From Thermogemmatispora sp. (GTDB lineage Bacteria; Chloroflexota; Ktedonobacteria; Ktedonobacterales; Ktedonobacteraceae): a stretch of DNA of 32,635 nucleotides. Below are positions 3,703 to 17,636 of this stretch, in pieces (positions within the stretch are counted from its first letter, which is position 1; each line of letters starts with the position of its first letter). Under the pieces are notes generated by a model. The model did no database searches. It was not told the origin of the DNA and saw only the letters and a list, made by a program, of their open reading frames with translations. Made by a program: the position numbers and the translations under genes. The stretch lies in assembly GCF_019683755.1 (NCBI RefSeq), contig NZ_JADGHT010000011.1, positions 1-32,635 of the forward strand. Direction: 5' to 3'.

Positions 3703-5151
3703 CTAGGGCTGGCCTCTCCCCGGCGCGTGCTCCTGGCGCTGGTGATCAGGATCGCTAAAGTAGAGATCGATCCCCCGCTTCAGGGTCTCTAGCAGCGTCT
3801 GGTAGCGATGCCGCAGTGGGAGCGAGACGCTGTGACCATCCAGCAGGCCCTGCAGGGCCTCAAAAAATTCTAGTTCTTGATGGCCGGTACCTACGCCCGC
3901 GAGACCATTGGCAAGCTGGGCCCGCAGGACTTCTCGCGCGCGCTGCAGGATCACTCGCACCGCTAGACTGGCCTCGGGATGGGCTGTGCAGACGTCGACG
4001 ACCGCTTCGCTGATGAAGGCCAGCATCTCTAGTGTCAGTGCGCCTCTGCTCATGGCACGCATGGCCTGGGTGAGCGGTCGCTCCAGCGCTTCGGCGATTA
4101 AGTCGGCGGCTCGCGGCGCTAACTCTTCCAGTTGCTCGTTGATGCCTTCTTCCTGGAGGTGCTCATGGAGCAGGGCAATCGAGGCCTCCACTTCTTCACG
4201 CTGACCAGGCGGCGCTTGCCAGTCGCTCAGCTCGCGTATGCGTAGAAAGCAGGCCAGCGCCAGGCGCGTCTGATTGAAGAAGGCAAAGAAAATCGCCAGG
4301 TTGCTCAAGATGATGGCTTCGCGCTCCTGGTCGTGGATCTGGCGCGCGAGGCTAAGGGCCTCACGATAGCAGCGCAGGGCCTCTCTGGGCTGCAGACAGG
4401 TCTGATAGAGCTGGCCCAGGCCGCCGAGCGTGAGGGCTAAGAGGGGACGGTCGTTCTCGCGACGGAGCAGGAGCAGCGCCTCCTGATAGTAGGCATGGGC
4501 ACGCTGGATCTGCCCAAGCGAGAAGGAGAGGCAGGCCAGTTTGCTCAGCGTAGCTCCCTGGCCGCGTCGATCGTCGATCTCGTGTTGGATGAGTAGCGCC
4601 TCCTGAAAACACTGTAAGGCCCGCTGGATCTGGCCGTGCTCTTGATAGAAGGTGCCCAGGTTGTTGAGCGTGGTGCCTTGACAGCGACGATTGCCTACTT
4701 CCCGATGAATGGCCAGGGCTTCACGATAGCAGATCAGGGCCTGCTGATCGTGGTGCAGCTCGTGGTAGAGGGTGGCCAGCCGCCCAAGGGTGGTACCTTC
4801 GCCCGGGAGGAAGCCGTTTTCGCGCTGGATATTTAAAGCCTGGCGATAGGCCTGTAAGGCTTGCTCTCGCTGGCCACGCTGTTGATAGAGCGTTCCCAGG
4901 CTACAGAGCGCGTTGGCTTCTTCGATGGGGAGGCCACGCTCGCGGCTGAGGGCCAGCGCTTGCTGATAGTAGTTGCAAGCCTGTTCAAGGTCATGCTCTC
5001 GCTGGAAAAGGAGGCCGAGCCTGAAGAGGCTAGCCATCTCACCATCCCGGTCCCCTTGCGCGCGCTGCCACTCTAGCTGCTGCTGATAGTGCGCAATTGC
5101 TTCACTACGGGTCATCTGACCCGGCTCTTCATTCTCTTGCTCGAACGCCAT
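3703..5151 (-). CDS. TPR-repeat protein (first of two)
   Basis: This is a 482-aa soluble protein. Residues about 35-320 form roughly seven TPR units of the 40-residue TPR_12/LGN type, with repeating signatures such as ALCSLGTLYQQRGQREQAL and TTLNNLGTFYQEHGQIQRAL. The C-terminal 150 residues are helical and not repeat-like. TPR arrays bind peptides or partner proteins, so this is presumably a scaffold or regulator. The start has GAGGAGC about 10 nt upstream. It resembles the neighbouring TPR protein in both repeat style and the last 60 residues (LLDGHSVSLP versus LLEGEPAELP), so the two are probably diverged paralogues. No enzyme domain is visible. It lies next to a cluster of small regulators and may belong to the same circuit. 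Confidence 0.85.
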   Translation of the reverse strand: MAFEQENEEPGQMTRSEAIAHYQQQLEWQRAQGDRDGEMASLFRLGLLFQREHDLEQACNYYQQALALSRERGLPIEEANALCSLGTLYQQRGQREQALQAYRQALNIQRENGFLPGEGTTLGRLATLYHELHHDQQALICYREALAIHREVGNRRCQGTTLNNLGTFYQEHGQIQRALQCFQEALLIQHEIDDRRGQGATLSKLACLSFSLGQIQRAHAYYQEALLLLRRENDRPLLALTLGGLGQLYQTCLQPREALRCYREALSLARQIHDQEREAIILSNLAIFFAFFNQTRLALACFLRIRELSDWQAPPGQREEVEASIALLHEHLQEEGINEQLEELAPRAADLIAEALERPLTQAMRAMSRGALTLEMLAFISEAVVDVCTAHPEASLAVRVILQRAREVLRAQLANGLAGVGTGHQELEFFEALQGLLDGHSVSLPLRHRYQTLLETLKRGIDLYFSDPDHQRQEHAPGRGQP

Positions 5152-5607: not shown

Positions 5608-7269
5608 CTAATCTTGCTGATTGCTTGCTATCTGGAAGGCCCTCCAGGCGGTTTGGCCCTTCTGGATAAGGAAGAGCGGCAGGGCATAGGGATGCTCGGG
5701 GGGCAGCTCGGCAGGCTCTCCCTCTAGGAGGGCCAGGAGGGCGGCGTAGAAGTCGGCTGCCGCGGCGCGGGCGCGCTGTTCGGCCTCGTCAGGCGCGCTC
5801 TGGGCCTGGGCCTGGGCCCGCAGGTGCTCTAGTTCGCTCTGCAGGGCCTGCCTCTCTTGGGGCGGACTCTGGTCCGCCAGGGCCAGGCTGATGCGCTCGA
5901 TCAGTGGGCTGAGCTGCTCGGGGGGCAGGATGAGCCGCTCTTGCTGGCTAGGCTCGGGGGGGATGATGCCGGCGATGGTGGCCTCGATCAGGAGGCTGCG
6001 CTCAGATTCGCTGATCTGGCGGATAAAGGCCAAGGCTTCGGGACCAAGTTGGTCGCGGATGGAAGCGATCTCGTCGTCGATGCTGGCGCAGGTGGTGCTG
6101 TCTCCCTGTTCTTCGGCGATGGTGCGCGCCTCGAGGAGGTGGGCCAGGGCGCTCTCTAGCTGGCCGAAGTGGCCGTAGAGGTCGCTGATGGAGCGCAGGG
6201 TGAGGATGAGGCCGGTGGTGTCGCCGCTGCGGGCGCGGCCAAGGAAGGCCCGTCGATAGCGGTCGATGGCCTGAACAGGCTGGCCCAGGTAATGGAAGAA
6301 CTGCCCGAGGGCGTTCCAGCTCATGTATTCGCAGGAGGGGGGCAGGTCGTTGCTCCTGGCCAGGGTCAGGGCCTGCTCGTAGTGGTGGCGGGCGCTCCCG
6401 GTGAGGGCAAGCTGAAAGAGGAGGCCGCCAAGGTCGATGTGGATGGCGAAGAGGCCGAGAGGGTCACTCTGGCTCCCGGCTTGCAGGGTCAGGGCCTGCT
6501 CGTAGGTGGCTCGCGCCTGCAGGAGCTGCCCGCTTTGGTGGTAGACCCCAGCCAGGCTGAGGAGAAAGCCGACTTCGCCTTCACGGTAGCCAAGTCTCCG
6601 GCAGAGGACGCAGGCTTCTTCGTAGAGGCGCCGGGCTTCTTTGTAGTGCTCCTGACGCTCGGCCAGCCGCCCCAGGTCTTTGATGACTATCAGTTCGCGC
6701 TGGAGGGCACCGGCTTGCTGCAGGAGTTGGCGCGCTTGCTGGTAGTGCTGGCGGGCCTCGTCGTAGCGCCCGCGTCGCTCGGCCAGCCGCCCCAGGTTGA
6801 TGAAGGGGACGGCCTCGTTGCTGGGTTCGCCCAGGGCCTGCAGGATCGCAATGGCTTCCTGGTAGGCGGCCTTTGCCTGTTCGTCACGCCCAAGACTTTC
6901 GTAAAGCTGGCCAAGGTTGTGGAGGGTGAAGGCCTGCCCTCGTCGGTCGTTGTGGTGGCGCAGGATGGTCAGGGCTTGCTCGTAAGCGGCTCGCGCGCGC
7001 TCGGGGTCCTCGTCTCTGAGGAGGACGCCAAGGTTGTGAAGGGTGGCAACTTCTCCCTGGGAGTCACCAAGCTGCTGGAAGATGGTCAGGGCCTGCTCGT
7101 ATGAAGTGAGCGCTTGCCCGGGCTGCCCTAGCTGTTGGTAGAGTCCTCCCAGTTCATGGAGGGTGGTCGCCTGGTGCCAGCGATCACCGCTGCGGCGGTG
7201 GTGCTCTAGTTCGCGCTGGCGCTGAGCGATCGCTTGTTCCAGGGCCAGCCTTTCGCCGTCGGTAGTCAT
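5608..7269 (-). CDS. TPR-repeat protein (second of two)
   Basis: This 553-aa protein is counted from the ATG of MTTDGERLALEQ. That start has AAAGGAGC about 7 nt upstream, whereas the ORF-track start at 7491 adds 74 low-complexity Arg/Ser/Pro residues with no ribosome site. About ten TPR units cover residues 10-400, each with a LG.LY...G...A...YE.AL pattern. The region after 420 is helical with a Gln/Ala/Arg-rich coiled-coil stretch and a final hydrophobic LPLFLIQKGQTAW block. It is a likely cytoplasmic scaffold. It is paralogous to the protein at 3703-5151. Its 5' region carries a copy of the duplicated element also found upstream of the first small XRE gene. Several long antisense ORFs here are shadows caused by G+C bias. 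Confidence 0.85.
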   Translation of the reverse strand: MTTDGERLALEQAIAQRQRELEHHRRSGDRWHQATTLHELGGLYQQLGQPGQALTSYEQALTIFQQLGDSQGEVATLHNLGVLLRDEDPERARAAYEQALTILRHHNDRRGQAFTLHNLGQLYESLGRDEQAKAAYQEAIAILQALGEPSNEAVPFINLGRLAERRGRYDEARQHYQQARQLLQQAGALQRELIVIKDLGRLAERQEHYKEARRLYEEACVLCRRLGYREGEVGFLLSLAGVYHQSGQLLQARATYEQALTLQAGSQSDPLGLFAIHIDLGGLLFQLALTGSARHHYEQALTLARSNDLPPSCEYMSWNALGQFFHYLGQPVQAIDRYRRAFLGRARSGDTTGLILTLRSISDLYGHFGQLESALAHLLEARTIAEEQGDSTTCASIDDEIASIRDQLGPEALAFIRQISESERSLLIEATIAGIIPPEPSQQERLILPPEQLSPLIERISLALADQSPPQERQALQSELEHLRAQAQAQSAPDEAEQRARAAAADFYAALLALLEGEPAELPPEHPYALPLFLIQKGQTAWRAFQIASNQQD

Positions 7270-7686
7270 GCGAGGCTGCTCCTTTCTCCAGCTCTGTAGA
7301 GCACGCCTCGGAGTGGATCGCTTCGCTCGCCGGCCAGGTGGCGGCGTGAGGGACGGGCCAGGATGGCGCGCTCCGCTTGGGCTGGCTTGTCCTGTTGTCT
7401 CTCTCTGGCGCCCGCTCGCCTCTTCTGTCACCCAGCGCTGCGCCTCTCGCTGGCCTGCGCTCCGCTCAGTCACCCCAGACAGCATCAGCATTGCGCTGGA
7501 CGACGATCCAGCAAGCAGACGCCCCTTTTCTTCTCTTGTGAAGAGTATACACTATTCGCCAGGGTGTTTGCACGCGATGTCGCTCGCTTGCGCTTCTGCC
7601 CTCCTGTTGCGGCGAGGGTTCTGGAGAGGCCAGCTCTCGCCGCCTGGTGGGCGTTGCGCTGGTGTTGCTCTTTCGCTCGCGCGCTC
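7270..7686. other. Leader of the second TPR gene and space before XRE-1
   Basis: No separate gene is supported. An in-frame extension of the TPR ORF runs to 7491 but looks non-coding. The region holds one copy of the duplicated element (7510-7577). Confidence 0.55.
7510..7577. repeat. Duplicated regulatory element, copy 1
   Basis: About 68 bp are matched at 8143-8209. Two 14-bp boxes are identical in both copies: TGAAGAGTATACAC (7539-7552) and GTGTTTGCACGCGA (7564-7577). They are separated by 11 variable bases here and 10 in the other copy. Read on the minus strand, the first box contains a TATACT -10 motif with TGCAAA 17 bp upstream. The copy lies 110 bp downstream of XRE-1 and upstream of the second TPR gene. 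Confidence 0.6.
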
Positions 7687-7956
7687 CTAATGAGGGGGAC
7701 GCTTGCCTCTGGCTGCCTTGCGCTTGAGCTGCTGCAGTTCTTCTTGCATTTGCTCCCGCGATACGTCTTCGATGAGGGCCGTGACGGGTACGTCCAGCGC
7801 TTCGGCGATGCGATTGAGGGTATAGGTGGAGATCGTTCTATAGGGATTGGCGCAAATACCACGAATAATGTAATAGCTAATTTCCGCTAACATAGAAAGA
7901 CGATGCATTGATATATTTTTCTCTTGAGCTACTTCTTTGACTCGCAGACGTAACAT
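7687..7956 (-). CDS. Small XRE-family regulator, paralogue 1
   Basis: This 89-aa Cro/C1-type helix-turn-helix protein opens with MLRLRVKEVA, as do its two sisters in this window. The HTH covers residues about 1-65: KNISMHRLSMLAEISYYIIR is helix 2-turn-helix 3, then NRIAEALDVPVTALIED. The last 20 residues are charged and basic. It has no sensor domain, so it is probably a dimeric repressor or an antitoxin-like regulator. It starts at ATG behind AGAGGAAT, with a TGCTATGCT extended -10 about 30 nt upstream of the start. It sits in the same orientation as the second TPR gene, about 420 bp upstream of it. Targets are unknown; the duplicated boxes nearby are plausible binding sites. Confidence 0.85.
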   Translation of the reverse strand: MLRLRVKEVAQEKNISMHRLSMLAEISYYIIRGICANPYRTISTYTLNRIAEALDVPVTALIEDVSREQMQEELQQLKRKAARGKRPPH

Positions 7957-8302: not shown

Positions 8303-8572
8303 TCAATCAGGCTCAGTCTCATACTCGGACGATTTCCTTTTGAGGCGCTGTCGCTCCTTTTCAGCCTGCTCCCGCGGGACATCTTCGATGATCTCGGTGA
8401 CGGGCACGCCCAGCGCTTCAGCGATGCGATTGATTGTGTCCGAGGAGACCGGTTTGTAGGGATCAACAAAGATCTCGCGAATGACGTGATAGCTGAGCTG
8501 TGCTTGCAGAGAAAGTCTATGCATTGACATTCTCTTTGCTAAGGCAACTTCTTTAACGCGCAGGCGCAGCAA
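8303..8572 (-). CDS. Small XRE-family regulator, paralogue 2
   Basis: This 89-aa Cro/C1-type helix-turn-helix protein is the closest relative of XRE-1: same length, same MLRLRVKEVA start, and a shared GVPVTEIIEDVPREQ segment. The recognition region is RMSMHRLSLQAQLSYHVIR. It starts at TTG with a strong GGAGGAA site about 6 nt upstream. An AGCATA (minus TATGCT) extended -10 sits 27 nt before the start. The rare start codon suggests low, buffered expression. The tail is acidic (SSEYETEPD), unlike the basic tail of XRE-1, so partner specificity may differ. It is divergent from the 134-aa gene on the plus strand. Confidence 0.85.
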   Translation of the reverse strand: MLRLRVKEVALAKRMSMHRLSLQAQLSYHVIREIFVDPYKPVSSDTINRIAEALGVPVTEIIEDVPREQAEKERQRLKRKSSEYETEPD

Positions 8573-9685: not shown

Positions 9686-9985
9686 TTACGCCGGGGACCG
9701 GCTCTGCTGGCGAGGCTGGCGCCCGGGCCGGCGCGGTATGGCCAGTTCTGCCGCCAGGGCGAGCTGCTCGCGCGCCATGTCTTCCTCTGAAACATCCTCC
9801 ATGAGGGCGGTCGTTGGCACCCCCAAGGCTCGCGCCAGGCGGTTGACGGTGGCGGTATTGGTGGGCCGATAAGGATTGCGATAAATGGCCTTAATGATGT
9901 TATAGCTGACTCCAGCACAATGTGATAGCTGGTTCATTGACAGTCCCTTCTCACGTGCGACCTCTTTCAAGCGCAGCCGAAGCAC
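9686..9985 (-). CDS. Small XRE-family regulator, paralogue 3, divergent from the TIR operon
   Basis: This 99-aa Cro/C1-type helix-turn-helix protein is homologous to XRE-1 and XRE-2 (MLRLRLKEVA, NPYRP, GVPTTALMEDVSEED). The recognition region is GLSMNQLSHCAGVSYNIIK. It has a longer, strongly basic Arg/Gln/Pro-rich tail that could bind nucleic acid nonspecifically. It starts at GTG behind GAGGAGAG, so the three paralogues use ATG, TTG and GTG respectively. It shares its upstream region with the small ORF/TIR-STAND operon on the other strand, so it is the natural candidate for that operon's repressor and for autoregulation. The family is clear; the regulatory role is inferred from position. Confidence 0.85.
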   Translation of the reverse strand: MLRLRLKEVAREKGLSMNQLSHCAGVSYNIIKAIYRNPYRPTNTATVNRLARALGVPTTALMEDVSEEDMAREQLALAAELAIPRRPGRQPRQQSRSPA

Positions 9986-10135: not shown

Positions 10136-10164
10136 ATGACGCGAGCTGTATTTTATGGTATACT
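10136..10164 (+). promoter_or_regulatory. Promoter of the small ORF/TIR-STAND operon
   Basis: ATGACG (10136-10141) has four of six -35 matches. After 17 bp comes TATACT (10159-10164), preceded by TGG, which makes an extended -10. Transcription would start near 10171, about 100 nt before the small ORF. Confidence 0.6.
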
Positions 10165-10271
10165 CGCAGAAGAAGCGGGCAGCTTTGTAAGACAAGAGCA
10201 GCGAGCTGCCTCGTCTCTGGGGAAAGCCCACAGGCGTGGGTCAGCCGCTGGCAGAAAGGAAGCGCGCCATC

Positions 10272-10517
10272 ATGGAAGCGGAGCCGAGTCAGCTATTTTG
10301 TCCCGACGCCTACCCAGATAACGCCGACTGGACAAAGCGCACCTGGGACCTGCCAGAGATCACCAGCCCCGAGAAGCTGGACGCCTATCTCGAGAGCACC
10401 GGGCTGTCGGCCCAAGCCTTTGCCTGCCTTCCGGTCTGTCGTTGGAACGTCTCCAAGATCCCCTGGTTACGCGACTGGTTGCTGAGTCATGGGTTGCCCG
10501 TGCCGCCCGAGAGCTGA
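10272..10517 (+). CDS. Small protein of unknown function upstream of the TIR-STAND gene
   Basis: I do not recognise this 81-aa protein. The chosen ATG (MEAEPSQLFC) has AAAGGA about 12 nt upstream; a GTG 12 codons earlier (10236) is also open. It is acidic and Trp-rich, with three Cys (LFCPDAYP, AFACLPVCRW). A helix-like ITSPEKLDAYLESTGLSAQAF stretch resembles a short helical bundle, and the tail ends in a Pro-rich stretch. It lies 100 bp before the 1526-aa gene on the same strand, behind the only good promoter, so the two are probably co-transcribed. It could be a partner, sensor or inhibitor of the TIR protein, but nothing in the sequence proves it. Confidence 0.6.
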   Translation: MEAEPSQLFCPDAYPDNADWTKRTWDLPEITSPEKLDAYLESTGLSAQAFACLPVCRWNVSKIPWLRDWLLSHGLPVPPES

Positions 10518-10617
10518 GAGCGCTGGCCAGGCCCGTCACCAGGCAGCGCAGAGCGCAGCCGGATCGCCTGGCCAGGTTCATAAGCTGGGATCAGGCTGAG
10601 GAGGCAGGAGGAGCAGC

Positions 10618-13600
10618 ATGCAAGCCGAGAGCCGAGCCAATTGGGGCCTGCGCGTCTACATCAGCCATGCCAGCGCGGAACGCAACTGGAGCGAGCATAT
10701 CGAGAGACGGGTAAGGCTGGCCGCGCGGGCCGCGGGCCTGGAGGCCCCGCACATCAGCGGGCCAGGAAAGGTACTGGCTGGCAGCGACTATCAGCAGGCC
10801 AGACGTGCCGCCCTTGAGAGCGCCAATCTCATTCTGCTCCTGATCAGCCCCGACTTTCTCACCGACGACCAGTGTCTGCAAGAAATGGAGATAGCCCTGG
10901 CGCGGCGGCGCGAGCGTGAGGTCACAGTTGTCCCCATCATTGTGCGTCCCGTGAGCTGGGAGCATACCCCACTTGGTGAGCTAGAAGCCTTGCCGCCGGG
11001 CCAGCCGCCCAAAGCCCTCAGCCTCTGGCGACCGCGCGACGAAGGACTCCATCGCATTGAGGAGGAACTACGCCGCCTCCTGAGCGCGCAGCGTTGGCGC
11101 GAGGGTTCTACCAGGGCCGGTCAGCTTGCGCCCGAGCAAGCGCGGGCCGTGCGCGCCATGCTCGTCGACCATCGTCCCTTTATCGCCAGCCGTGTCCGGG
11201 GATTTGTTGGCCGCAGCGCCGAGCTAGCCGCCATCCGCCGGCACATCGCCGAACTACAGCCGGGCGGCGGCTACCTGATCATCAGCGGGCAGGCTGGCCA
11301 GGGCAAAAGCAGCCTCATTGCCCGTCTGGTCCAGGAAGAGGGACCGGAGCGTGTGCCCCATCACTTCCTGCCGCTGGACCCGCCGAGCGATCACGTCGTA
11401 GCCTTGCTGCGCGACCTGCTGGCGCGCCTGATTCTCGCCGAATCTCTTGACCCGACGCCCTTACTGTTGGCCGGGACCAGTCGCGCCACCCTCACCACAG
11501 CCTTCTGGAACCTGCTCAACGAGCTGGGCGAGGCCGGGAAGCCTGTACTGATCTGCATCGACGGCCTTGACCAACTTCCGCGCTCGCCCTTCGGCAAGCG
11601 CGACCTGAGCTTTCTCCCCCTGAGACCCCCGCCGGGCTGCGTCTTCGTTCTCGGCAGCCGGCCCGATGACACGCTGGAGGCCCTTCACCAGCGCGGACCT
11701 GAGCGTGAGTACAGTCTGCCCCCTCTCAGCCGGGCCGACTTTGAGCAGCTTCTGCGGGCGCGCGGCCTGCAGCTCACGCGCGTCGAAGGCGACCGCCTCT
11801 ATGCCCTGACAGAGCAGAACACGCTCTACCTCGACCTGGCTGCCCGCGAGCTGGCGAGCGACCCAGCCCTGACCCCGCAAGCCTTGAGCGCGCGTCTCTC
11901 CAGCAATCCCGCCAACCTCTTTACCCTGAGCATCGAGCGTCTCAAGCAAGATCCCCATTGGGAGCGCACCATCTACCCCTTGCTGGGTCTGCTGCTCGTC
12001 GCGCGCGAGCCACTGGGACCATCTCACCTGAGCGATATTTTGGCTCCCCTCCCAACCTATCAGGTGCGCGACGCCTTGCGGCAGCTCGGTGGCCTGCTCG
12101 TCAGCGACAGCAATGGGCACTACAGCCTCTTCCACTCCAAGCTACGCGACTATCTGCGTCAGGACCCCCAACAGCCGGGCAAGCCGTACCTCTTCACGGT
12201 CGCCGAAGAGGCGCATTGGCATCGCATACTGGCCGACTGGTGTGAGCGTGGCGGCAGTGAGCTGATCTGGCAAGAGGCGCGTCACGATCCTGACGAGGAC
12301 CGGCGTCGGAGCTACGCCCGGCAGCACCTGGCGGCCCACCTCTTCTACGGGCGGGCCTGGGAGCGTCTCTTTGCTCTACTCGACGCCGGTCGCTATGGCC
12401 AGCGCAAGATTCACGAGCTTGATCCGAGCACCCGCGCCTACGCTGACGATCTTGACCTGGGACGCCAGGCCGCGGCCTGGGAGGGCTGGAGCTTCAGCGA
12501 GGGCCTGGCCCAGCTTCCCCGCCTGTGGCGCTACACCTTTTTGCGCTGCAGCCTGAGCAGTCAGGCTGAGCGCTATCCGCCGCAAGCCTTCGCCCTGCTC
12601 GTTCAGCTTGGGCGGCAGCATGAGGCGCTTGGGCTGAGCGATCTCATCAGCGATCCCGGGCGTCGGCTAGAGGCCCTGGTAGCCATCGCGCGCCAGCTCC
12701 AGGAGCAGGGAGCGCCGGAGGAAGACTATGGGCCGCTCTACTGGCGCGCCTGCGATGTGGCGCGCCATAGCTACGAGCCGGATCGTCTGGCCCCCTTACT
12801 GAGCGAGCTGGCGGAGGATCTCTACAGGGCCGGCTGGCGAGAATCGGCCCTCCAGCTCTGGCGGACAGCCATCGACGTGGCACGGCGCATTCCCCTGGCC
12901 GAGCCATGCGCAGAGACCCTCTTAGAGATCGCCCAAGGGCTGGCCGAAGCCGGACAGAGCGACGAGATCGAGGAGATCATCGAAGTCATGCCCGCCGAGA
13001 CCCTGCAGAACGAAGCGCGTCAGGCCCTGGTCACCGCCCTGGCACGGTCCCAGCGCTGGAGCGACGCCGATCAGGCGCTGGTCACCATCCCCGAAGAGGC
13101 TGCTGGAGCACGCGTCGCCGCCCTGGCCGAGCTAGGGCGCGCACTGGCCCAGGCTGGCGAGCAAGAGCGAGCGCAATCCTTATGGCAGCAGGCCGAGCGG
13201 CTGGCCATGACCATAGCCTTTCCCTGGGAGCAGGCCAGCGCCTTAGTCAGACTGGTGCAAGCTCTGGCCAGTGCTCAGCGCTGGAGCGAGGCCAAGCGCC
13301 TCTGTGAGAGCATTCCCGACCGGTGGCAGCGGGGTGAAGCACAGCTAGTACTGGTGCGCGCGCTGGTCAGCGCCGCCCGCTGGCAGGAAGCAGAAGCCCT
13401 CTGCCAGCAGATCAACGACCAGGGCCAGGAGGCCGAGGCCCGTCTGAGCCTGGTTCAGGCCCTGATCGCTGCCGGGCGCTGGCAGGAGGCCGAGGCCCTG
13501 AGCAGCAGCATCACGCGCCCGCGCGAGCGTTTGCAGGCCCTGGCCGCGCTTGGCCAGGCGCATGCCGAGCGTGGTCAGGCGAGCGCAGCGCGGTGCCTCT

Positions 13601-15198
13601 GGCAGCAGGCAGAAGCCGAGCTTAGGCGGCTAGAGCGCGCTGACGAGCAGCAGGCGGCTTGTGTCCTGCTTGGGCAGACAGCGGCGCGAGCGGGTCTGTC
13701 GGCAGAGGCGCAGCGCTACTGGCGGCAGGCGGAGGCGATCACGCGCGCGCTGCCGGACGGCGAAGAACGGCGCGACGCCCTGGCCCTGCTGACAAGAAGC
13801 CTGGTTCAGCTTGAGCGCTGGCAGGAGGCCGTCCGCATCGCCAGTACGATTGGCGACTGGCAGCAACACGCTGAGGTCCTTATCGCCCTGGGCCGGGGCC
13901 TCAGCCAGACGGGACAGCAGGCCGAGGCTGAGCAGCTCTGGTGGCAGGTGGTCAAGCTGGTGCGGAAGCAGGCCAGGACACGCGAGCAGCGCCGGGCCGC
14001 TATCACGCTCGTCACAGCCTTCGAATCACCGGCGGCCTGGTGGGATGAGGCGGAGCGCTGCGTCCGCAGCCTGGTGGAGGGCCAAGAGCGGGGCGAGGTG
14101 CTGGCCTATCTTGGACGGCTGGAGGCGCAGGCGGGGACCAGAGAGCGGGCCCGGCGCCTCTGGCAGGAAGCCGAAACCCTGATCGCCGCAGAAGACAGCA
14201 GTTGGGAGCAATCCGACGGCTACCAGGCTCTGGCGCGCGAGCTGGCTCGGGCTGGTGAATGGGCCGAGGCCGAACGCATTGTCGAGCGCGTGCCCGGGGG
14301 CTGGGAGCGGGCCGATGCTCAAGTGCTGCTGGTCCGCGAGCTGACCAGGGCCGGGAACCTTGATGAGGCCGAGCGGCTCTCTCGGGCCATTGAGCTGGCC
14401 CCTCAGCGGGTCGAGGCCCTGCTGATCCTGGGGCAGGCCTACGCCCAGCGAGCAGAGCCAGAGCAGCAGGCGCGGGCTGAGGAGTGCTGGCGCCAGGCTG
14501 AGCAGCTCATCGAGGGCCTGGAGGCGCCGCAGCGGGCTGAGCTGCTGGCCTCCCTGGGGGGAGCCGTCGCCGCCGCGGGCGAGCCTGAGCGAGCGCGGCA
14601 GTACTGGCAGCAAAGCGAGCAGTGTATCGCCGGCCTGACGGGCGAATGGGTACAGGCTGAGGCCCTGGCTGATCTGACCAAGACCCTGATTACTGCCCGC
14701 GAGTGGGACGAGGCGGAGCGCCTCTTGAAGCGCTTTCCGCATGGCTGGCGGGCCAGCAAGCTGGCGACCAGGTTGGTCACCGCGCTAGCCGAGGCGGGCA
14801 AGTGGGAAGCCGCGCGGCGCATCAGTAAGAGCATTGCCGTGGATCAGGAGCGGGCGCAGGCCTTAGCGGTCCTGGGGCGAGCGCTGGCGCAGGCTGGTGA
14901 GCGTGAGCAAGCACGCCAGCTCTGGGCAGAGGCTCAGGCTCTCAGCGCAGCGATCCCTACCGAGGAGGAACAGGCGCAGGCCTTGCTGGCGCTGGGGCAG
15001 GCCTTGGACGAGGCTGGCGCGCATGAGGAGCTACTGCGTTTGGTCCAGCGGGAGTGGCTGCGCGTTGGCACGCGCGTGCAGGCGCTGCGACTCTTTCCAC
15101 TGATCGGGGGCTTGCTCAGGTTAGCACCCGAGCTTGGGCCGGCTCTAGGCGAGGCCTTTGCCGCCGTCGACCGCTTCCTGGCCGGAGCCGTCGACTGA
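10618..15198 (+). CDS. TIR-STAND NTPase-solenoid protein (NLR-like)
   Basis: This is a 1526-aa, three-part signalling protein with a strong start (AGGAGG 6 nt before ATG). Residues about 9-155 are a bacterial TIR domain: VYISHASA, ILLLISPDFL, and VVPIIVRPVSWE with PLGELEALP. E91 in QEMEIAL lies where NAD-cleaving TIR domains keep their catalytic Glu. Residues about 195-480 are a STAND/NACHT-type NTPase with Walker A GQAGQGKS (224-231), Walker B LICIDGLDQL (311-320) and a following winged-helix-like region. From about 590 to 1500 there are degenerate TPR-like helical repeats (ALA.AG....A..LW..AE). In known bacterial NLR-like proteins the solenoid senses a trigger, the NTPase oligomerises and the TIR domain depletes NAD. 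By analogy this is a likely anti-phage or stress effector. The domain order is clear; the trigger is unknown. Confidence 0.9.
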   Translation: MQAESRANWGLRVYISHASAERNWSEHIERRVRLAARAAGLEAPHISGPGKVLAGSDYQQARRAALESANLILLLISPDFLTDDQCLQEMEIALARRREREVTVVPIIVRPVSWEHTPLGELEALPPGQPPKALSLWRPRDEGLHRIEEELRRLLSAQRWREGSTRAGQLAPEQARAVRAMLVDHRPFIASRVRGFVGRSAELAAIRRHIAELQPGGGYLIISGQAGQGKSSLIARLVQEEGPERVPHHFLPLDPPSDHVVALLRDLLARLILAESLDPTPLLLAGTSRATLTTAFWNLLNELGEAGKPVLICIDGLDQLPRSPFGKRDLSFLPLRPPPGCVFVLGSRPDDTLEALHQRGPEREYSLPPLSRADFEQLLRARGLQLTRVEGDRLYALTEQNTLYLDLAARELASDPALTPQALSARLSSNPANLFTLSIERLKQDPHWERTIYPLLGLLLVAREPLGPSHLSDILAPLPTYQVRDALRQLGGLLVSDSNGHYSLFHSKLRDYLRQDPQQPGKPYLFTVAEEAHWHRILADWCERGGSELIWQEARHDPDEDRRRSYARQHLAAHLFYGRAWERLFALLDAGRYGQRKIHELDPSTRAYADDLDLGRQAAAWEGWSFSEGLAQLPRLWRYTFLRCSLSSQAERYPPQAFALLVQLGRQHEALGLSDLISDPGRRLEALVAIARQLQEQGAPEEDYGPLYWRACDVARHSYEPDRLAPLLSELAEDLYRAGWRESALQLWRTAIDVARRIPLAEPCAETLLEIAQGLAEAGQSDEIEEIIEVMPAETLQNEARQALVTALARSQRWSDADQALVTIPEEAAGARVAALAELGRALAQAGEQERAQSLWQQAERLAMTIAFPWEQASALVRLVQALASAQRWSEAKRLCESIPDRWQRGEAQLVLVRALVSAARWQEAEALCQQINDQGQEAEARLSLVQALIAAGRWQEAEALSSSITRPRERLQALAALGQAHAERGQASAARCLWQQAEAELRRLERADEQQAACVLLGQTAARAGLSAEAQRYWRQAEAITRALPDGEERRDALALLTRSLVQLERWQEAVRIASTIGDWQQHAEVLIALGRGLSQTGQQAEAEQLWWQVVKLVRKQARTREQRRAAITLVTAFESPAAWWDEAERCVRSLVEGQERGEVLAYLGRLEAQAGTRERARRLWQEAETLIAAEDSSWEQSDGYQALARELARAGEWAEAERIVERVPGGWERADAQVLLVRELTRAGNLDEAERLSRAIELAPQRVEALLILGQAYAQRAEPEQQARAEECWRQAEQLIEGLEAPQRAELLASLGGAVAAAGEPERARQYWQQSEQCIAGLTGEWVQAEALADLTKTLITAREWDEAERLLKRFPHGWRASKLATRLVTALAEAGKWEAARRISKSIAVDQERAQALAVLGRALAQAGEREQARQLWAEAQALSAAIPTEEEQAQALLALGQALDEAGAHEELLRLVQREWLRVGTRVQALRLFPLIGGLLRLAPELGPALGEAFAAVDRFLAGAVD

Positions 15199-15662
15199 AG
15201 GCCCGTAAGCGGTTCAGCCCACCACAAGCCAAGCCGCAACTCCATACAGCTCCAATGCGCTGCACCTCGCCAGGCCAATGCCGACCGTGCTGCCCCGCCT
15301 CCTCCCACTCTCGCCTCGACCCGCCGCTGCCTCACAAGCCAGCCTCCCGGACAGGCCCCGCTTCTCGATAGAGCCAGACCCGCCATCAAGGCGACTCCCG
15401 CGGCCTGCAGCGCCACCACGCCTCTCCTCCGTCTCGCGTCCCTGCCCCACCCAGCACCCACAGGCGCACTGGCCACAGCCCACCTTTCCCGGCCAGGCAC
15501 CAGCCCACCCCTGCCATGATATAATGAAATGCGGCGGCAGCCCGCAGCGGTTCCGGTGCCTGCCCTGCCTCCGTGCTGCCACCAGCAAGTAAGCAACTCA
15601 GGCAGAGCCAGCCAGAGGCCACAGCCAGCAAATCAGCCAGACCAACGAGCGAAGACGCCAGT
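15199..15662. other. Intergenic region before uvrC
   Basis: No gene is supported. The stretch is very C-rich on the plus strand. It holds an extended -10 promoter at 15517-15525. No convincing terminator for the TIR gene was found. Confidence 0.55.
15517..15525 (+). promoter_or_regulatory. Extended -10 promoter of uvrC
   Basis: TGATATAAT (15517-15525) is a perfect extended -10 element in otherwise G+C-rich DNA. The -35 region is poor. The leader to 15663 would be about 130 nt. Confidence 0.55.
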
Positions 15663-17636
15663 ATGAACGACAAAATCCGCAGTGTCCTCAACAGCCTGCC
15701 CCACAAGCCGGGCATCTACCTCATGAAAGACGCCCAGGGGCAAATCATCTATGTCGGCAAAGCCGTCTCACTCCATCAGCGCGTCCGTTCCTACTTTCAG
15801 GAATCCGCCGACCTCAGCCCCAAGAATCGCAGCATGGTCGCGCGCGTCGACGACATCGAATACGTCGTCGTCGAAAACGAGATCGAAGCCCTGGTACTCG
15901 AAAGCAACTACATCAAGCAATATCGCCCGAAATACAATGTTCTGCTGCGGGATGACAAAAACTATCCCTACATCAAAGTAGCCCTCAGCGAAGACTTTCC
16001 GCGCGTCTATCGCGTGCGCAACTACCAGCGTGACGGCAACCGCTACTTTGGACCATACACCAGCTCAGCCGCCGTCGACGCCACCCTTGACCTGCTCAAC
16101 AAACTCTTCCCCTTCCGCACCTGCCGCTACGACGGCAGCGCCTGGGCCCCGCCGCGCAATGGTCCGACGCCACCTGGCTGGAAGCCCAAGTACCTGAGCC
16201 GGCCCTGCACGCAATACTACATTCATCGCTGCCTGGCTCCGTGCGTCGGCTACGCCACGCGCGAAGACTACGACGCCATCATCGCCCAGGTCATTCTTTT
16301 CCTCGAAGGCAAACATGAGGAAGTCGTCAAGCAGCTCGAGGCCCGCATGCACGAGGCCGCTGAGGCCCTCAACTTTGAGGAAGCCGCCCGCCTGCGCGAC
16401 CGCATCCGCGCCGTCGAGCACATACTAGAGAAGCAGCGCATCATCAACACCGAAGGGCAAGAAGACCAGGACGTCATCGCCCTGGCCAGCGCCGAAGACG
16501 AAACCTGCGCCCAGGTCTTCTTTTTCCGCGCTGGCAAACTCATCGGGCGCGAATACTTCATCCTGCAAGGCACCCGCGACAGCAGCCCGGGGGAAATCAT
16601 GAGTTCCTTCCTGCAGCAGTTTTACGAGAGCGCGCCCCACATTCCCGCCGAAATCGTCCTGGAAGTCGAGCCAGATGACCGCGATATGCTGCTGGCCTGG
16701 CTCAAAAGCCGGCGCGGCAAAGCTGTCAGCCTGAGCATTCCGCGGCGCGGAGACAAGCGCAGCCTCATCGAGCTGGTCAAACAGAACGCCCAGGAAGTGC
16801 TCGAGCAGCAGCGCATCAAATGGCTCAGCGACAGCCAGAAGACCCAGCTTGCCCTTGAAGAGCTGCAGGCCGCCCTGAACCTGGCGGCGCCGCCCTACCG
16901 CATCGAATGCTACGACGTCTCCAACATCCAGGGCAGCAGCGCCGTTGGAGCCATGATCGTCTTTGAAGCCGGGCGCCCCAAGCCAGCAGAGTACCGGCGC
17001 TTTCGCATCAAGAGCGTCGAAGGCGCCAATGACCCCGCCAGCCATCAAGAGATCCTGCGCCGCCGCTTCCGTCGCGAGCCGGGCACGGGAGCGCCCTCCT
17101 CCGCCAAAGAGGCGGACGAGGCAGAGAACAGCATCGAGAACGCTGCCGCGCAAGCCGCCGCCTTCAGCCACGACTGGCCTCTACCGGACCTCATCGTCAT
17201 CGACGGCGGTAAAGCCCAGCTCAATGCCGCCCTGCAGGTCCTCGAAGAGCTGCACGTCGAAGTTCCTGTCATCGGACTGGCAAAAGAAGAAGGCTCACAC
17301 AGCCGCCTGCCGACCGCCGAAGAGATCTACCTGCCAGGCAGCGCCGAACCGCTGCGTCTACCGCGCACCTCCCAGGGCCTCTACCTACTGCAGCGCATCC
17401 GCGACGAGGCCCACCGCTTTGGCATCACCTACCATCGCAAGCTACGCAGCCAGCGCACATTCAAATCACAGCTCGACGAGATCCCGGGCATCGGCCCCAG
17501 ACGCAAGCAGGCCCTGCTCAAGCACTTCGGCTCACTGCAGGCCATCAGCCAGGCCAGCATCGAAGAGCTAGCCGCCGTCGAGGGCATGACGCGCGCCGCT
17601 GCCGAAAAGGTCAAAGAATACATCGGCAAATCCTAG
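15663..17636 (+). CDS. uvrC: UvrC, excinuclease ABC subunit C
   Basis: UvrC makes both incisions around a DNA lesion in UvrABC nucleotide excision repair. The 657-aa product starts at MNDKIRSVL; the ORF-track start 30 codons upstream lacks conservation and a ribosome site. In order it has the GIY-YIG nuclease domain (GIY 17-19, YVG 30-32, catalytic-type E80), four Cys (C154, C182, C190, C194) of the reported Fe-S site, a UVR motif (EALNFEEAARLRDRI) and the RNase H-like endonuclease domain (ECYDVSN, VIDGGKAQL and the later DEAHRFG His). A double helix-hairpin-helix (IPGIGPRRKQALL, VEGMTRAAAEKV) ends it. The spacing between the first two Cys is larger than in E. coli because of a Pro/Trp-rich insert. 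It appears monocistronic, with no other uvr gene nearby. No strong Shine-Dalgarno is visible. Confidence 0.98.
   Translation: MNDKIRSVLNSLPHKPGIYLMKDAQGQIIYVGKAVSLHQRVRSYFQESADLSPKNRSMVARVDDIEYVVVENEIEALVLESNYIKQYRPKYNVLLRDDKNYPYIKVALSEDFPRVYRVRNYQRDGNRYFGPYTSSAAVDATLDLLNKLFPFRTCRYDGSAWAPPRNGPTPPGWKPKYLSRPCTQYYIHRCLAPCVGYATREDYDAIIAQVILFLEGKHEEVVKQLEARMHEAAEALNFEEAARLRDRIRAVEHILEKQRIINTEGQEDQDVIALASAEDETCAQVFFFRAGKLIGREYFILQGTRDSSPGEIMSSFLQQFYESAPHIPAEIVLEVEPDDRDMLLAWLKSRRGKAVSLSIPRRGDKRSLIELVKQNAQEVLEQQRIKWLSDSQKTQLALEELQAALNLAAPPYRIECYDVSNIQGSSAVGAMIVFEAGRPKPAEYRRFRIKSVEGANDPASHQEILRRRFRREPGTGAPSSAKEADEAENSIENAAAQAAAFSHDWPLPDLIVIDGGKAQLNAALQVLEELHVEVPVIGLAKEEGSHSRLPTAEEIYLPGSAEPLRLPRTSQGLYLLQRIRDEAHRFGITYHRKLRSQRTFKSQLDEIPGIGPRRKQALLKHFGSLQAISQASIEELAAVEGMTRAAAEKVKEYIGKS

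What the first reader, a model, noticed from the sequence alone, without database searches (positions are those of the whole stretch)
10136..15198. TIR-STAND-solenoid giant with a small unknown ORF as a candidate defence or cell-suicide system
One operon appears to encode an 81-aa Cys/Trp-containing protein and a 1526-aa protein with an N-terminal TIR domain (E91 at the NADase position), an intact Walker A/B STAND NTPase and about 900 residues of degenerate TPR-like repeats. This architecture matches bacterial NLR-like immune proteins. The small upstream ORF is not one I know from described systems and may be a regulator, a sensor or a bait.
Basis: partly seen in the sequence, partly recalled or inferred. 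Interest (0 to 1): 0.8.

Follow-up and report, generated by a model that had tools for sequence, protein, structure and literature searches.

The report
TIR-STAND gene with phage-like small partner
A heat-loving soil bacterium carries an animal- and plant-like immune receptor gene, and just in front of it, in half of its sister species, sits a tiny gene whose only known relatives are virus proteins found beside virus ADP-ribosylating enzymes, which suggests that the cell uses a copy of a viral enzyme's partner as bait or antidote.

Summary
The window (Thermogemmatispora, Chloroflexota) encodes an 81-aa protein (10272-10517) and a 1526-aa TIR-STAND-TPR protein (10618-15198) behind one conserved promoter-like site (10136-10164). 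The TIR NADase glutamate is E89, not E91. The giant is a genus core gene, in all six genomes at one syntenic site near uvrC; by fold it is closest to the TIR-NLR RPP1, a STAND-TPR protein and Apaf-1. The 81-aa gene is real (dN/dS about 0.25) but occurs in only three of six species; the other three lack it and have D at position 89. New here: the 81-aa protein belongs to an unnamed, otherwise viral family ("DNADW"). A profile made from viral members alone finds it at E about 1e-18. In 28 of 43 non-redundant viral loci found through a DRAT-like ADP-ribosyltransferase (ART), a DNADW domain lies near or fused to the ART. In 400 Chloroflexota genomes it occurs only at this locus; no such ART was found in the order. 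Most likely the host copy is a captured partner of a phage ART that acts as bait or antidote watched by the NLR-like protein (inferred, untested). New variant of a known kind; interest 0.62.

The parts
10136..10164 (+). Promoter-like site (ATGACG, 17 nt, TATACT, with TG before the -10), shared leader of the small gene and the TIR-STAND gene
   Evidence: 1 found, 0.2 expected; the TATGGTATACT segment is present in all six genus leaders; 85% identity against about 58% around it
10272..10517 (+). 81-aa DNADW-family protein (P0002); D12, N17, D19, W20, W25, P54 invariant in 17 aligned family members
   Evidence: purifying selection; viral family; helices 33-72, flexible N-terminus
10618..15198 (+). 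TIR-STAND-TPR protein, 1526 aa (P0001)
10648..11097 (+). TIR domain (residues about 11-160)
   Evidence: TIR_2 1.3e-11; ThsB TIR model 2.8e-20; alpha/beta secondary structure in the model
10882..10884 (+).
   Evidence: D at this place in three congeners
11188..11937 (+). STAND/NACHT NTPase module (residues about 191-440)
   Evidence: AAA_16, NACHT; fold matches RPP1, STAND-TPR 6mfv, Apaf-1
11287..11310 (+). Walker A GQAGQGKS (residues 224-231)
   Evidence: G227, G229, K230, S231 invariant in six orthologues
11548..11577 (+). Walker B LICIDGLDQL (residues 311-320)
   Evidence: D315 and D318 invariant
11953..12192 (+). Winged-helix region (residues about 446-525)
   Evidence: HTH_TANC1 1.2e-3, below its curated cut-off
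12586..15117 (+). TPR-like alpha-solenoid, 33- and 40-residue periods
9686..9985 (-). Divergent Cro/C1-type HTH gene sharing the intergenic region; conserved at this place in all six species, possible regulator
15660..17636 (+). uvrC, syntenic neighbour (context, not part of the system)

Best explanation
The locus encodes an NLR-like immune receptor (TIR effector, STAND NTPase switch, TPR solenoid sensor) together with, in some species, a small host copy of a phage protein family (DNADW) that in viruses accompanies DRAT-like ADP-ribosyltransferases, several of them encoded in the phage head module. Proposed working: phages of this kind bring an ART into the cell; the host DNADW protein binds it as the phage's own DNADW partner would, which masks the ART and presents the complex (or its modified form) to the solenoid; the STAND module then oligomerises and the TIR domains cleave NAD+, stopping growth. 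Shown by sequence: architecture, co-directional order behind one promoter-like site, purifying selection on the small gene, its viral family, the ART link in viruses, and no detectable ART in the host order. Inferred: virus-to-host direction, binding to ART, binding to the solenoid, NADase activity, defence.
For: NLR-like fold and domains. Small gene real and in the leader of the giant. 52% identity over 62 residues to a viral 65-aa protein. Iterated profile from viral hits only scores the host protein at E about 1e-18; control loci gave only its congener. ART loci collected without using DNADW: 28 of 43 clusters hold a DNADW domain, mostly starting 22-116 bp after the ART match, some fused. 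ART identity: R, SS and ExE motifs invariant, DRAT above cut-off in L137. Head-module context: portal, MuF/ART, DNADW, capsid in L096; protease and capsid after it in L076; MuF fusion in L077. Host range: 3 of 400 Chloroflexota, all at this locus; no such ART in 47 genomes of the order. Precedents: phage MuF toxins including ARTs (PMC5576092); phage ART Bxa blocked by a small binding protein (PMC11699363); plant NLR RPM1 guarding RIN4, which the injected ART AvrRpm1 modifies.
Against: Three of six orthologous TIR-STAND genes stand without the small gene, so the receptor does not need it in general. The DNADW role in phages is itself unknown; DNADW is sometimes fused to the ART or heads the next gene, which fits a structural or loading role as well as an inhibitor role. 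No binding or activity data. The empty ART search in the host order had no positive control genome. The direction of transfer rests only on distribution.
Confidence: 0.4

Rival explanations
1. The 81-aa gene is an orphan antidote: it binds and blocks incoming phage ARTs by itself, and shares only a promoter with the TIR-STAND gene.
For: In phages DNADW genes mostly lie directly after the ART, the usual place of immunity genes of polymorphic toxins; Bsi is a small phage-encoded binder that blocks an ART; the host has no detected ART of its own.
Against: It would not explain why the gene is found only in the leader of the TIR-STAND gene in 400 genomes.
Confidence: 0.25
2. The 81-aa protein directly restrains or activates the TIR NADase (antitoxin-like or co-factor); species without it have a changed TIR (E89 to D).
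For: Small gene first, effector second, one leader; presence of the gene and E89 coincide in 3 of 3 species, absence and D89 in 3 of 3; both TIR and ART are NAD+ enzymes, so one small family might act on both.
Against: The coincidence may reflect one branch of the tree and is not independent evidence; the root of the genus is not resolved. TIR-STAND relatives with V or K at position 89 suggest that this residue is lost repeatedly.
Confidence: 0.2
3. The small gene is a passenger: a phage-derived gene kept for an unrelated reason and not functionally linked to the TIR-STAND gene.
For: Absent from half of the orthologues; it has phage relatives, and phage genes are often left behind in chromosomes.
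Against: dN/dS about 0.25 at dS about 0.8 shows long-term use; same order kept in three diverged species; co-directional behind a conserved promoter-like site.
Confidence: 0.15

Closest known systems
Plant TIR-NLRs (RPP1), Apaf-1, STAND-TPR proteins
   Same: TIR or other effector, NTPase switch, repeat sensor; best Foldseek matches of the 1-740 model
   Different: Bacterial; TPR instead of LRR or WD40; trigger unknown; TM-scores are low and the model is of medium confidence
Bacterial NLR-related proteins (bNACHT) and Avs
   Same: Tripartite STAND layout used against phages; guard-type sensing proposed for bNACHT25 (PMC12169576)
   Different: Here a TIR effector, no known phage trigger, a fixed core gene rather than an island gene, plus a virus-like small gene
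TIR AP-ATPase-TPR effectors linked to FxSxx peptide systems (PMC7159879)
   Same: N-terminal TIR, STAND/AP-ATPase and TPRs encoded near a short peptide gene
   Different: The 81-aa protein does not end in FxSxx, and none of the neighbours scanned is a peptide-processing enzyme
Phage MuF polymorphic toxins with ART domains; Bxa and its small immunity protein Bsi
   Same: Head-module toxin gene, small gene next to a phage ART (PMC5576092, PMC11699363); viral DNADW genes sit in such places
   Different: The host locus has the small gene but no ART or MuF gene; a relation of DNADW to Bsi was not tested
RIN4-RPM1-AvrRpm1 of plants
   Same: An NLR watching a small host protein that an injected ART acts on
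   Different: Analogy only, no homology claimed

Membership tests
STAND/NLR-like receptor | NACHT/AP-type NTPase with intact Walker A and B | tested here: met
STAND/NLR-like receptor | N-terminal effector and C-terminal repeat sensor | tested here: met
STAND/NLR-like receptor | Ligand-induced oligomerisation | not testable with these tools
   needs protein work
TIR NADase | Catalytic glutamate in the S-x-x-C-x-x-E motif | tested here: met
   E89 in the window protein (position 83 is D instead of S); aligns with Cat1 E74; D89 in three congeners
TIR NADase | NAD+ cleavage | not testable with these tools
   no assay
Thoeris | ThsB-type TIR | tested here: met
   PADLOC ThsB model 2.8e-20 on residues 15-159; this reflects the TIR domain only
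Thoeris | ThsA effector next to it | tested here: not met
   no ThsA match among the ten neighbouring proteins scanned
Mobile defence-island system | Patchy presence and clustering with other defence genes | tested here: not met
   in 6 of 6 genus genomes at one syntenic place; PADLOC hits of the neighbours are generic HTH, TPR and histidine kinase models
DNADW phage family | Sequence profile of the viral members | tested here: met
   viral-only profile, E 1.1e-18
DNADW phage family | Gene next to or fused to a DRAT-like ART | tested here: not met
   no ART at this locus or found elsewhere in the order (no positive control genome)
Phage ART immunity protein | Neutralises the neighbouring ART | not testable with these tools
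   needs co-expression
FxSxx peptide / TIR-AP-ATPase system | FxSxx tail on the small protein | tested here: not met
   C-terminus is PVPPES in the window, SDAE in congeners

The most novel reading that the evidence does not exclude
A bacterial NLR-like receptor has taken the viral partner of a phage-delivered ADP-ribosyltransferase as a bait: a bacterial counterpart of a guard-and-decoy pair, with the bait encoded in the receptor's own leader.
Probability: 0.28. Interest if true: 0.88.

Novelty: new variant of a known kind. Interest (0 to 1): 0.62.

Why it matters
What most bacterial STAND receptors sense is unknown. Here a candidate trigger can be named from sequence: phage DRAT-like ADP-ribosyltransferases whose small partner the host carries in front of the receptor. 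It also defines an unnamed viral protein family tied to a class of putative phage-delivered enzymes, with a likely antidote, loading or partner role that a simple co-expression test would settle. If true, it would be a bacterial case of an immune receptor with a virus-derived bait.

Tried and rejected
E91 as NADase residue: rejected, E89. Small ORF as chance ORF: rejected. Non-viral homologues of the 81-aa protein: weak hits in G010 (a frame that looks like a transposase), G045, G046, G018, G002 and G014 lie mostly in broken or unrelated frames and are not found with the broader profile; a hit in G127 is an OmdA/YdeI-family protein at chance level for 400 genomes. Pfam Ish1 hit of the small ORF: below cut-off, covers 15 residues. 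PHROGs, NCBIfam, Pfam and PDB searches with DNADW proteins: nothing convincing. BFVD fold search: one weak unnamed match, none below E 0.001. Plasmids: none. The ART alignment of six was too diverse for a scan; a subset of three worked. Genus rooting by UvrC or by the TIR-STAND tree: unresolved, so gain or loss of the small gene is undecided. Fxs peptide system and Thoeris: defining partners not seen.

Full report
WHAT IS THERE. The window is contig G000:C409 of a draft genome (4.9 Mb, 537 contigs) in the genus Thermogemmatispora; named congeners came back as T. carboxidivorans PM5, T. aurantia A1-2, T. tikiterensis T81 and MAG HOG59. An 81-aa ORF runs from 10272 to 10517 and a 1526-aa ORF from 10618 to 15198. 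The only sigma-70-like site of the region, with an extended -10, is at 10136-10164. Its TATGGTATACT is present in all six genus genomes, including those that lack the small ORF. So the small gene lies in the leader of the large one, and co-transcription is likely (inferred).

THE LARGE PROTEIN. Pfam finds TIR_2 (1.3e-11), AAA_16 and NACHT (3.8e-11, 1.7e-8), a weak winged helix, and TPR-type repeats. The solenoid has 33- and 40-residue periods. A model of residues 1-740 (mean pLDDT 67, so medium at best) matches, in the PDB, the plant TIR-NLR RPP1 tetramer first, then a STAND-TPR protein and Apaf-1. The NLR-like reading is therefore supported by sequence and fold. Related STAND-TPR genes elsewhere in Chloroflexota carry other N-termini, among them sequences that look like caspases by eye (GHG and DCC motifs), so the chassis seems to exchange effectors.

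THE CATALYTIC RESIDUE. The alignment to the CRISPR-associated TIR protein Cat1 puts it at E89; Cat1 E74 lines the active site and is needed for toxicity (PMC12162218). Across Ktedonobacterales TIRs the S-x-x-C-x-x-E motif ends at position 89, whereas position 91 is E, Q, K, R, T or L. E89 is present in the window species and in G039 and G040, and is D in G038, G041 and G042.

CONSERVATION OF THE GIANT. It is in all six genus genomes, full length, at 73-77% identity to the window protein, at one place: small HTH genes upstream in all six, and uvrC downstream in those where the fetched stretch reaches it. UvrC is 92-94% identical, so the giant evolves much faster: the TIR (64-70%) and solenoid fastest, the NTPase and residues 531-720 slowest. 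It is a fixed core gene, not an island gene; PADLOC on ten neighbours gave only generic HTH, TPR and kinase models.

THE SMALL PROTEIN. It is present in three of six species (window, G039, G040); the leader of the other three is shorter and has no such ORF. dN/dS is 0.25-0.29 at dS about 0.8, with synonymous against non-synonymous differences unequal at p 3e-6 on approximate counts. DNA identity is 75% in the ORF, 57% before it and 42% after it. It is a selected gene. Whether it was gained or lost within the genus is undecided because the genus tree could not be rooted.

A VIRAL FAMILY. A scan of IMG/VR with the three host proteins found five viral relatives, the best 52% identical over 62 residues. 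They share the DNADW, W-D-L and F-x-x-LP motifs (broader set). In each the gene is next to, or fused to, a protein with the R, SS, ExE pattern of ADP-ribosyltransferases (in L075 read by eye). Bacillus phage SP-15 has it just upstream of SP15_258, also an ART by motif. L096 has portal, MuF plus ART, DNADW, then a scaffold-like ORF and capsid.

TEST OF THE ART LINK. To avoid circularity I collected viral loci with the ART domain alone: 62 loci, plus L181 from a second ART query. A DNADW profile hit 35 of these 63 loci; after merging near-identical ARTs, 28 of 43 clusters have it, on the same strand, usually starting 22-116 bp after the ART match. Some of the 15 negatives end soon after the ART. 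The three ARTs used as query came from DNADW loci, so a bias towards that ART subfamily remains. In 38 control loci the only hit was the T. carboxidivorans homologue (2.2e-18; the next best E was 1.6). The final profile contained viral sequences only and scored the window protein at 1.1e-18. The ART is DRAT-like: one member passes the Pfam cut-off (L137, 35.3 bits), and five of six others match weakly.

HOST DISTRIBUTION. With a broad 17-sequence profile, 3 of 400 Chloroflexota genomes have the protein, all at this locus. The ART was not found in 47 genomes of the order (no positive control genome, so weak evidence). Wide in viruses and narrow in hosts suggests virus-to-host transfer, which is inference. 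Other phyla were not scanned.

STRUCTURE OF THE SMALL PROTEIN. AlphaFold2 gives four short helices (33-72, pLDDT about 85), with residues 1-17 at low confidence and the rest of the conserved DNADW-WDL stretch without secondary structure. A conserved but flexible motif beside a small helical core fits a binding peptide; this is a guess.

HOW IT MIGHT WORK. Phage MuF proteins can carry toxin domains, some of them ARTs, and were proposed to be delivered with the DNA; small genes after toxin genes are usually immunity genes (PMC5576092). For the prophage ART Bxa, a small neighbour (Bsi) binds and blocks the enzyme (PMC11699363). By analogy the viral DNADW protein is a partner, perhaps the inhibitor or loader, of the ART. 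A host copy before an NLR-like receptor would be a bait or antidote: it meets the incoming ART, and the receptor reads the event. Plants offer a parallel in RPM1, which guards RIN4, a protein that the injected ART AvrRpm1 modifies. I put this at 0.4, stand-alone antidote at 0.25, direct TIR control at 0.2, passenger at 0.15.

LIMITS. Function is inferred from sequence throughout. The small gene is dispensable for three orthologues. E89 and the gene go together in six species, but this may be a single branch. Several DNADW domains are fused to the ART or head the next gene, which speaks for a structural role as much as for inhibition.

Noticed in passing
window 7687-7956, 8303-8572, 9686-9985 (- strand): Three paralogous 89-99-aa Cro/C1-type HTH genes, conserved as a group in the genus; the last is divergent from the TIR-STAND leader and may regulate it.
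   Followed up: partly
window 3703-5151 and 5608-7491 (- strand): Two TPR-only proteins upstream, largely syntenic in congeners.
   Followed up: no
L048 5629-9297 (G000:C373): Second TIR-STAND gene in the same genome, with V at the NADase glutamate position and no small co-directional gene seen in the roughly 290-bp gap to the divergent gene.
   Followed up: partly
L059, L060, L062, L064, L066: STAND-TPR relatives in other Chloroflexota with caspase-like N-termini (GHG and DCC motifs seen by eye); L062, L064 and L066 have an upstream 144-239-aa ORF.
   Followed up: no
L137 2507-5227: Viral protein with two DNADW domains and a DRAT domain in one chain.
   Followed up: no
L141 4759-6078: Viral DNADW-headed ORF with weak HipA-like/PI3K-like kinase matches further on, directly after the ART.
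   Followed up: no
L079 2634-5000: By eye, an intein-like insertion in a MuF-like region of the ART protein before its viral DNADW gene.
   Followed up: no
L153 1535-5146: Portal protein, pentapeptide repeats, DRAT-like ART and DNADW in a single 1204-aa viral frame.
   Followed up: no
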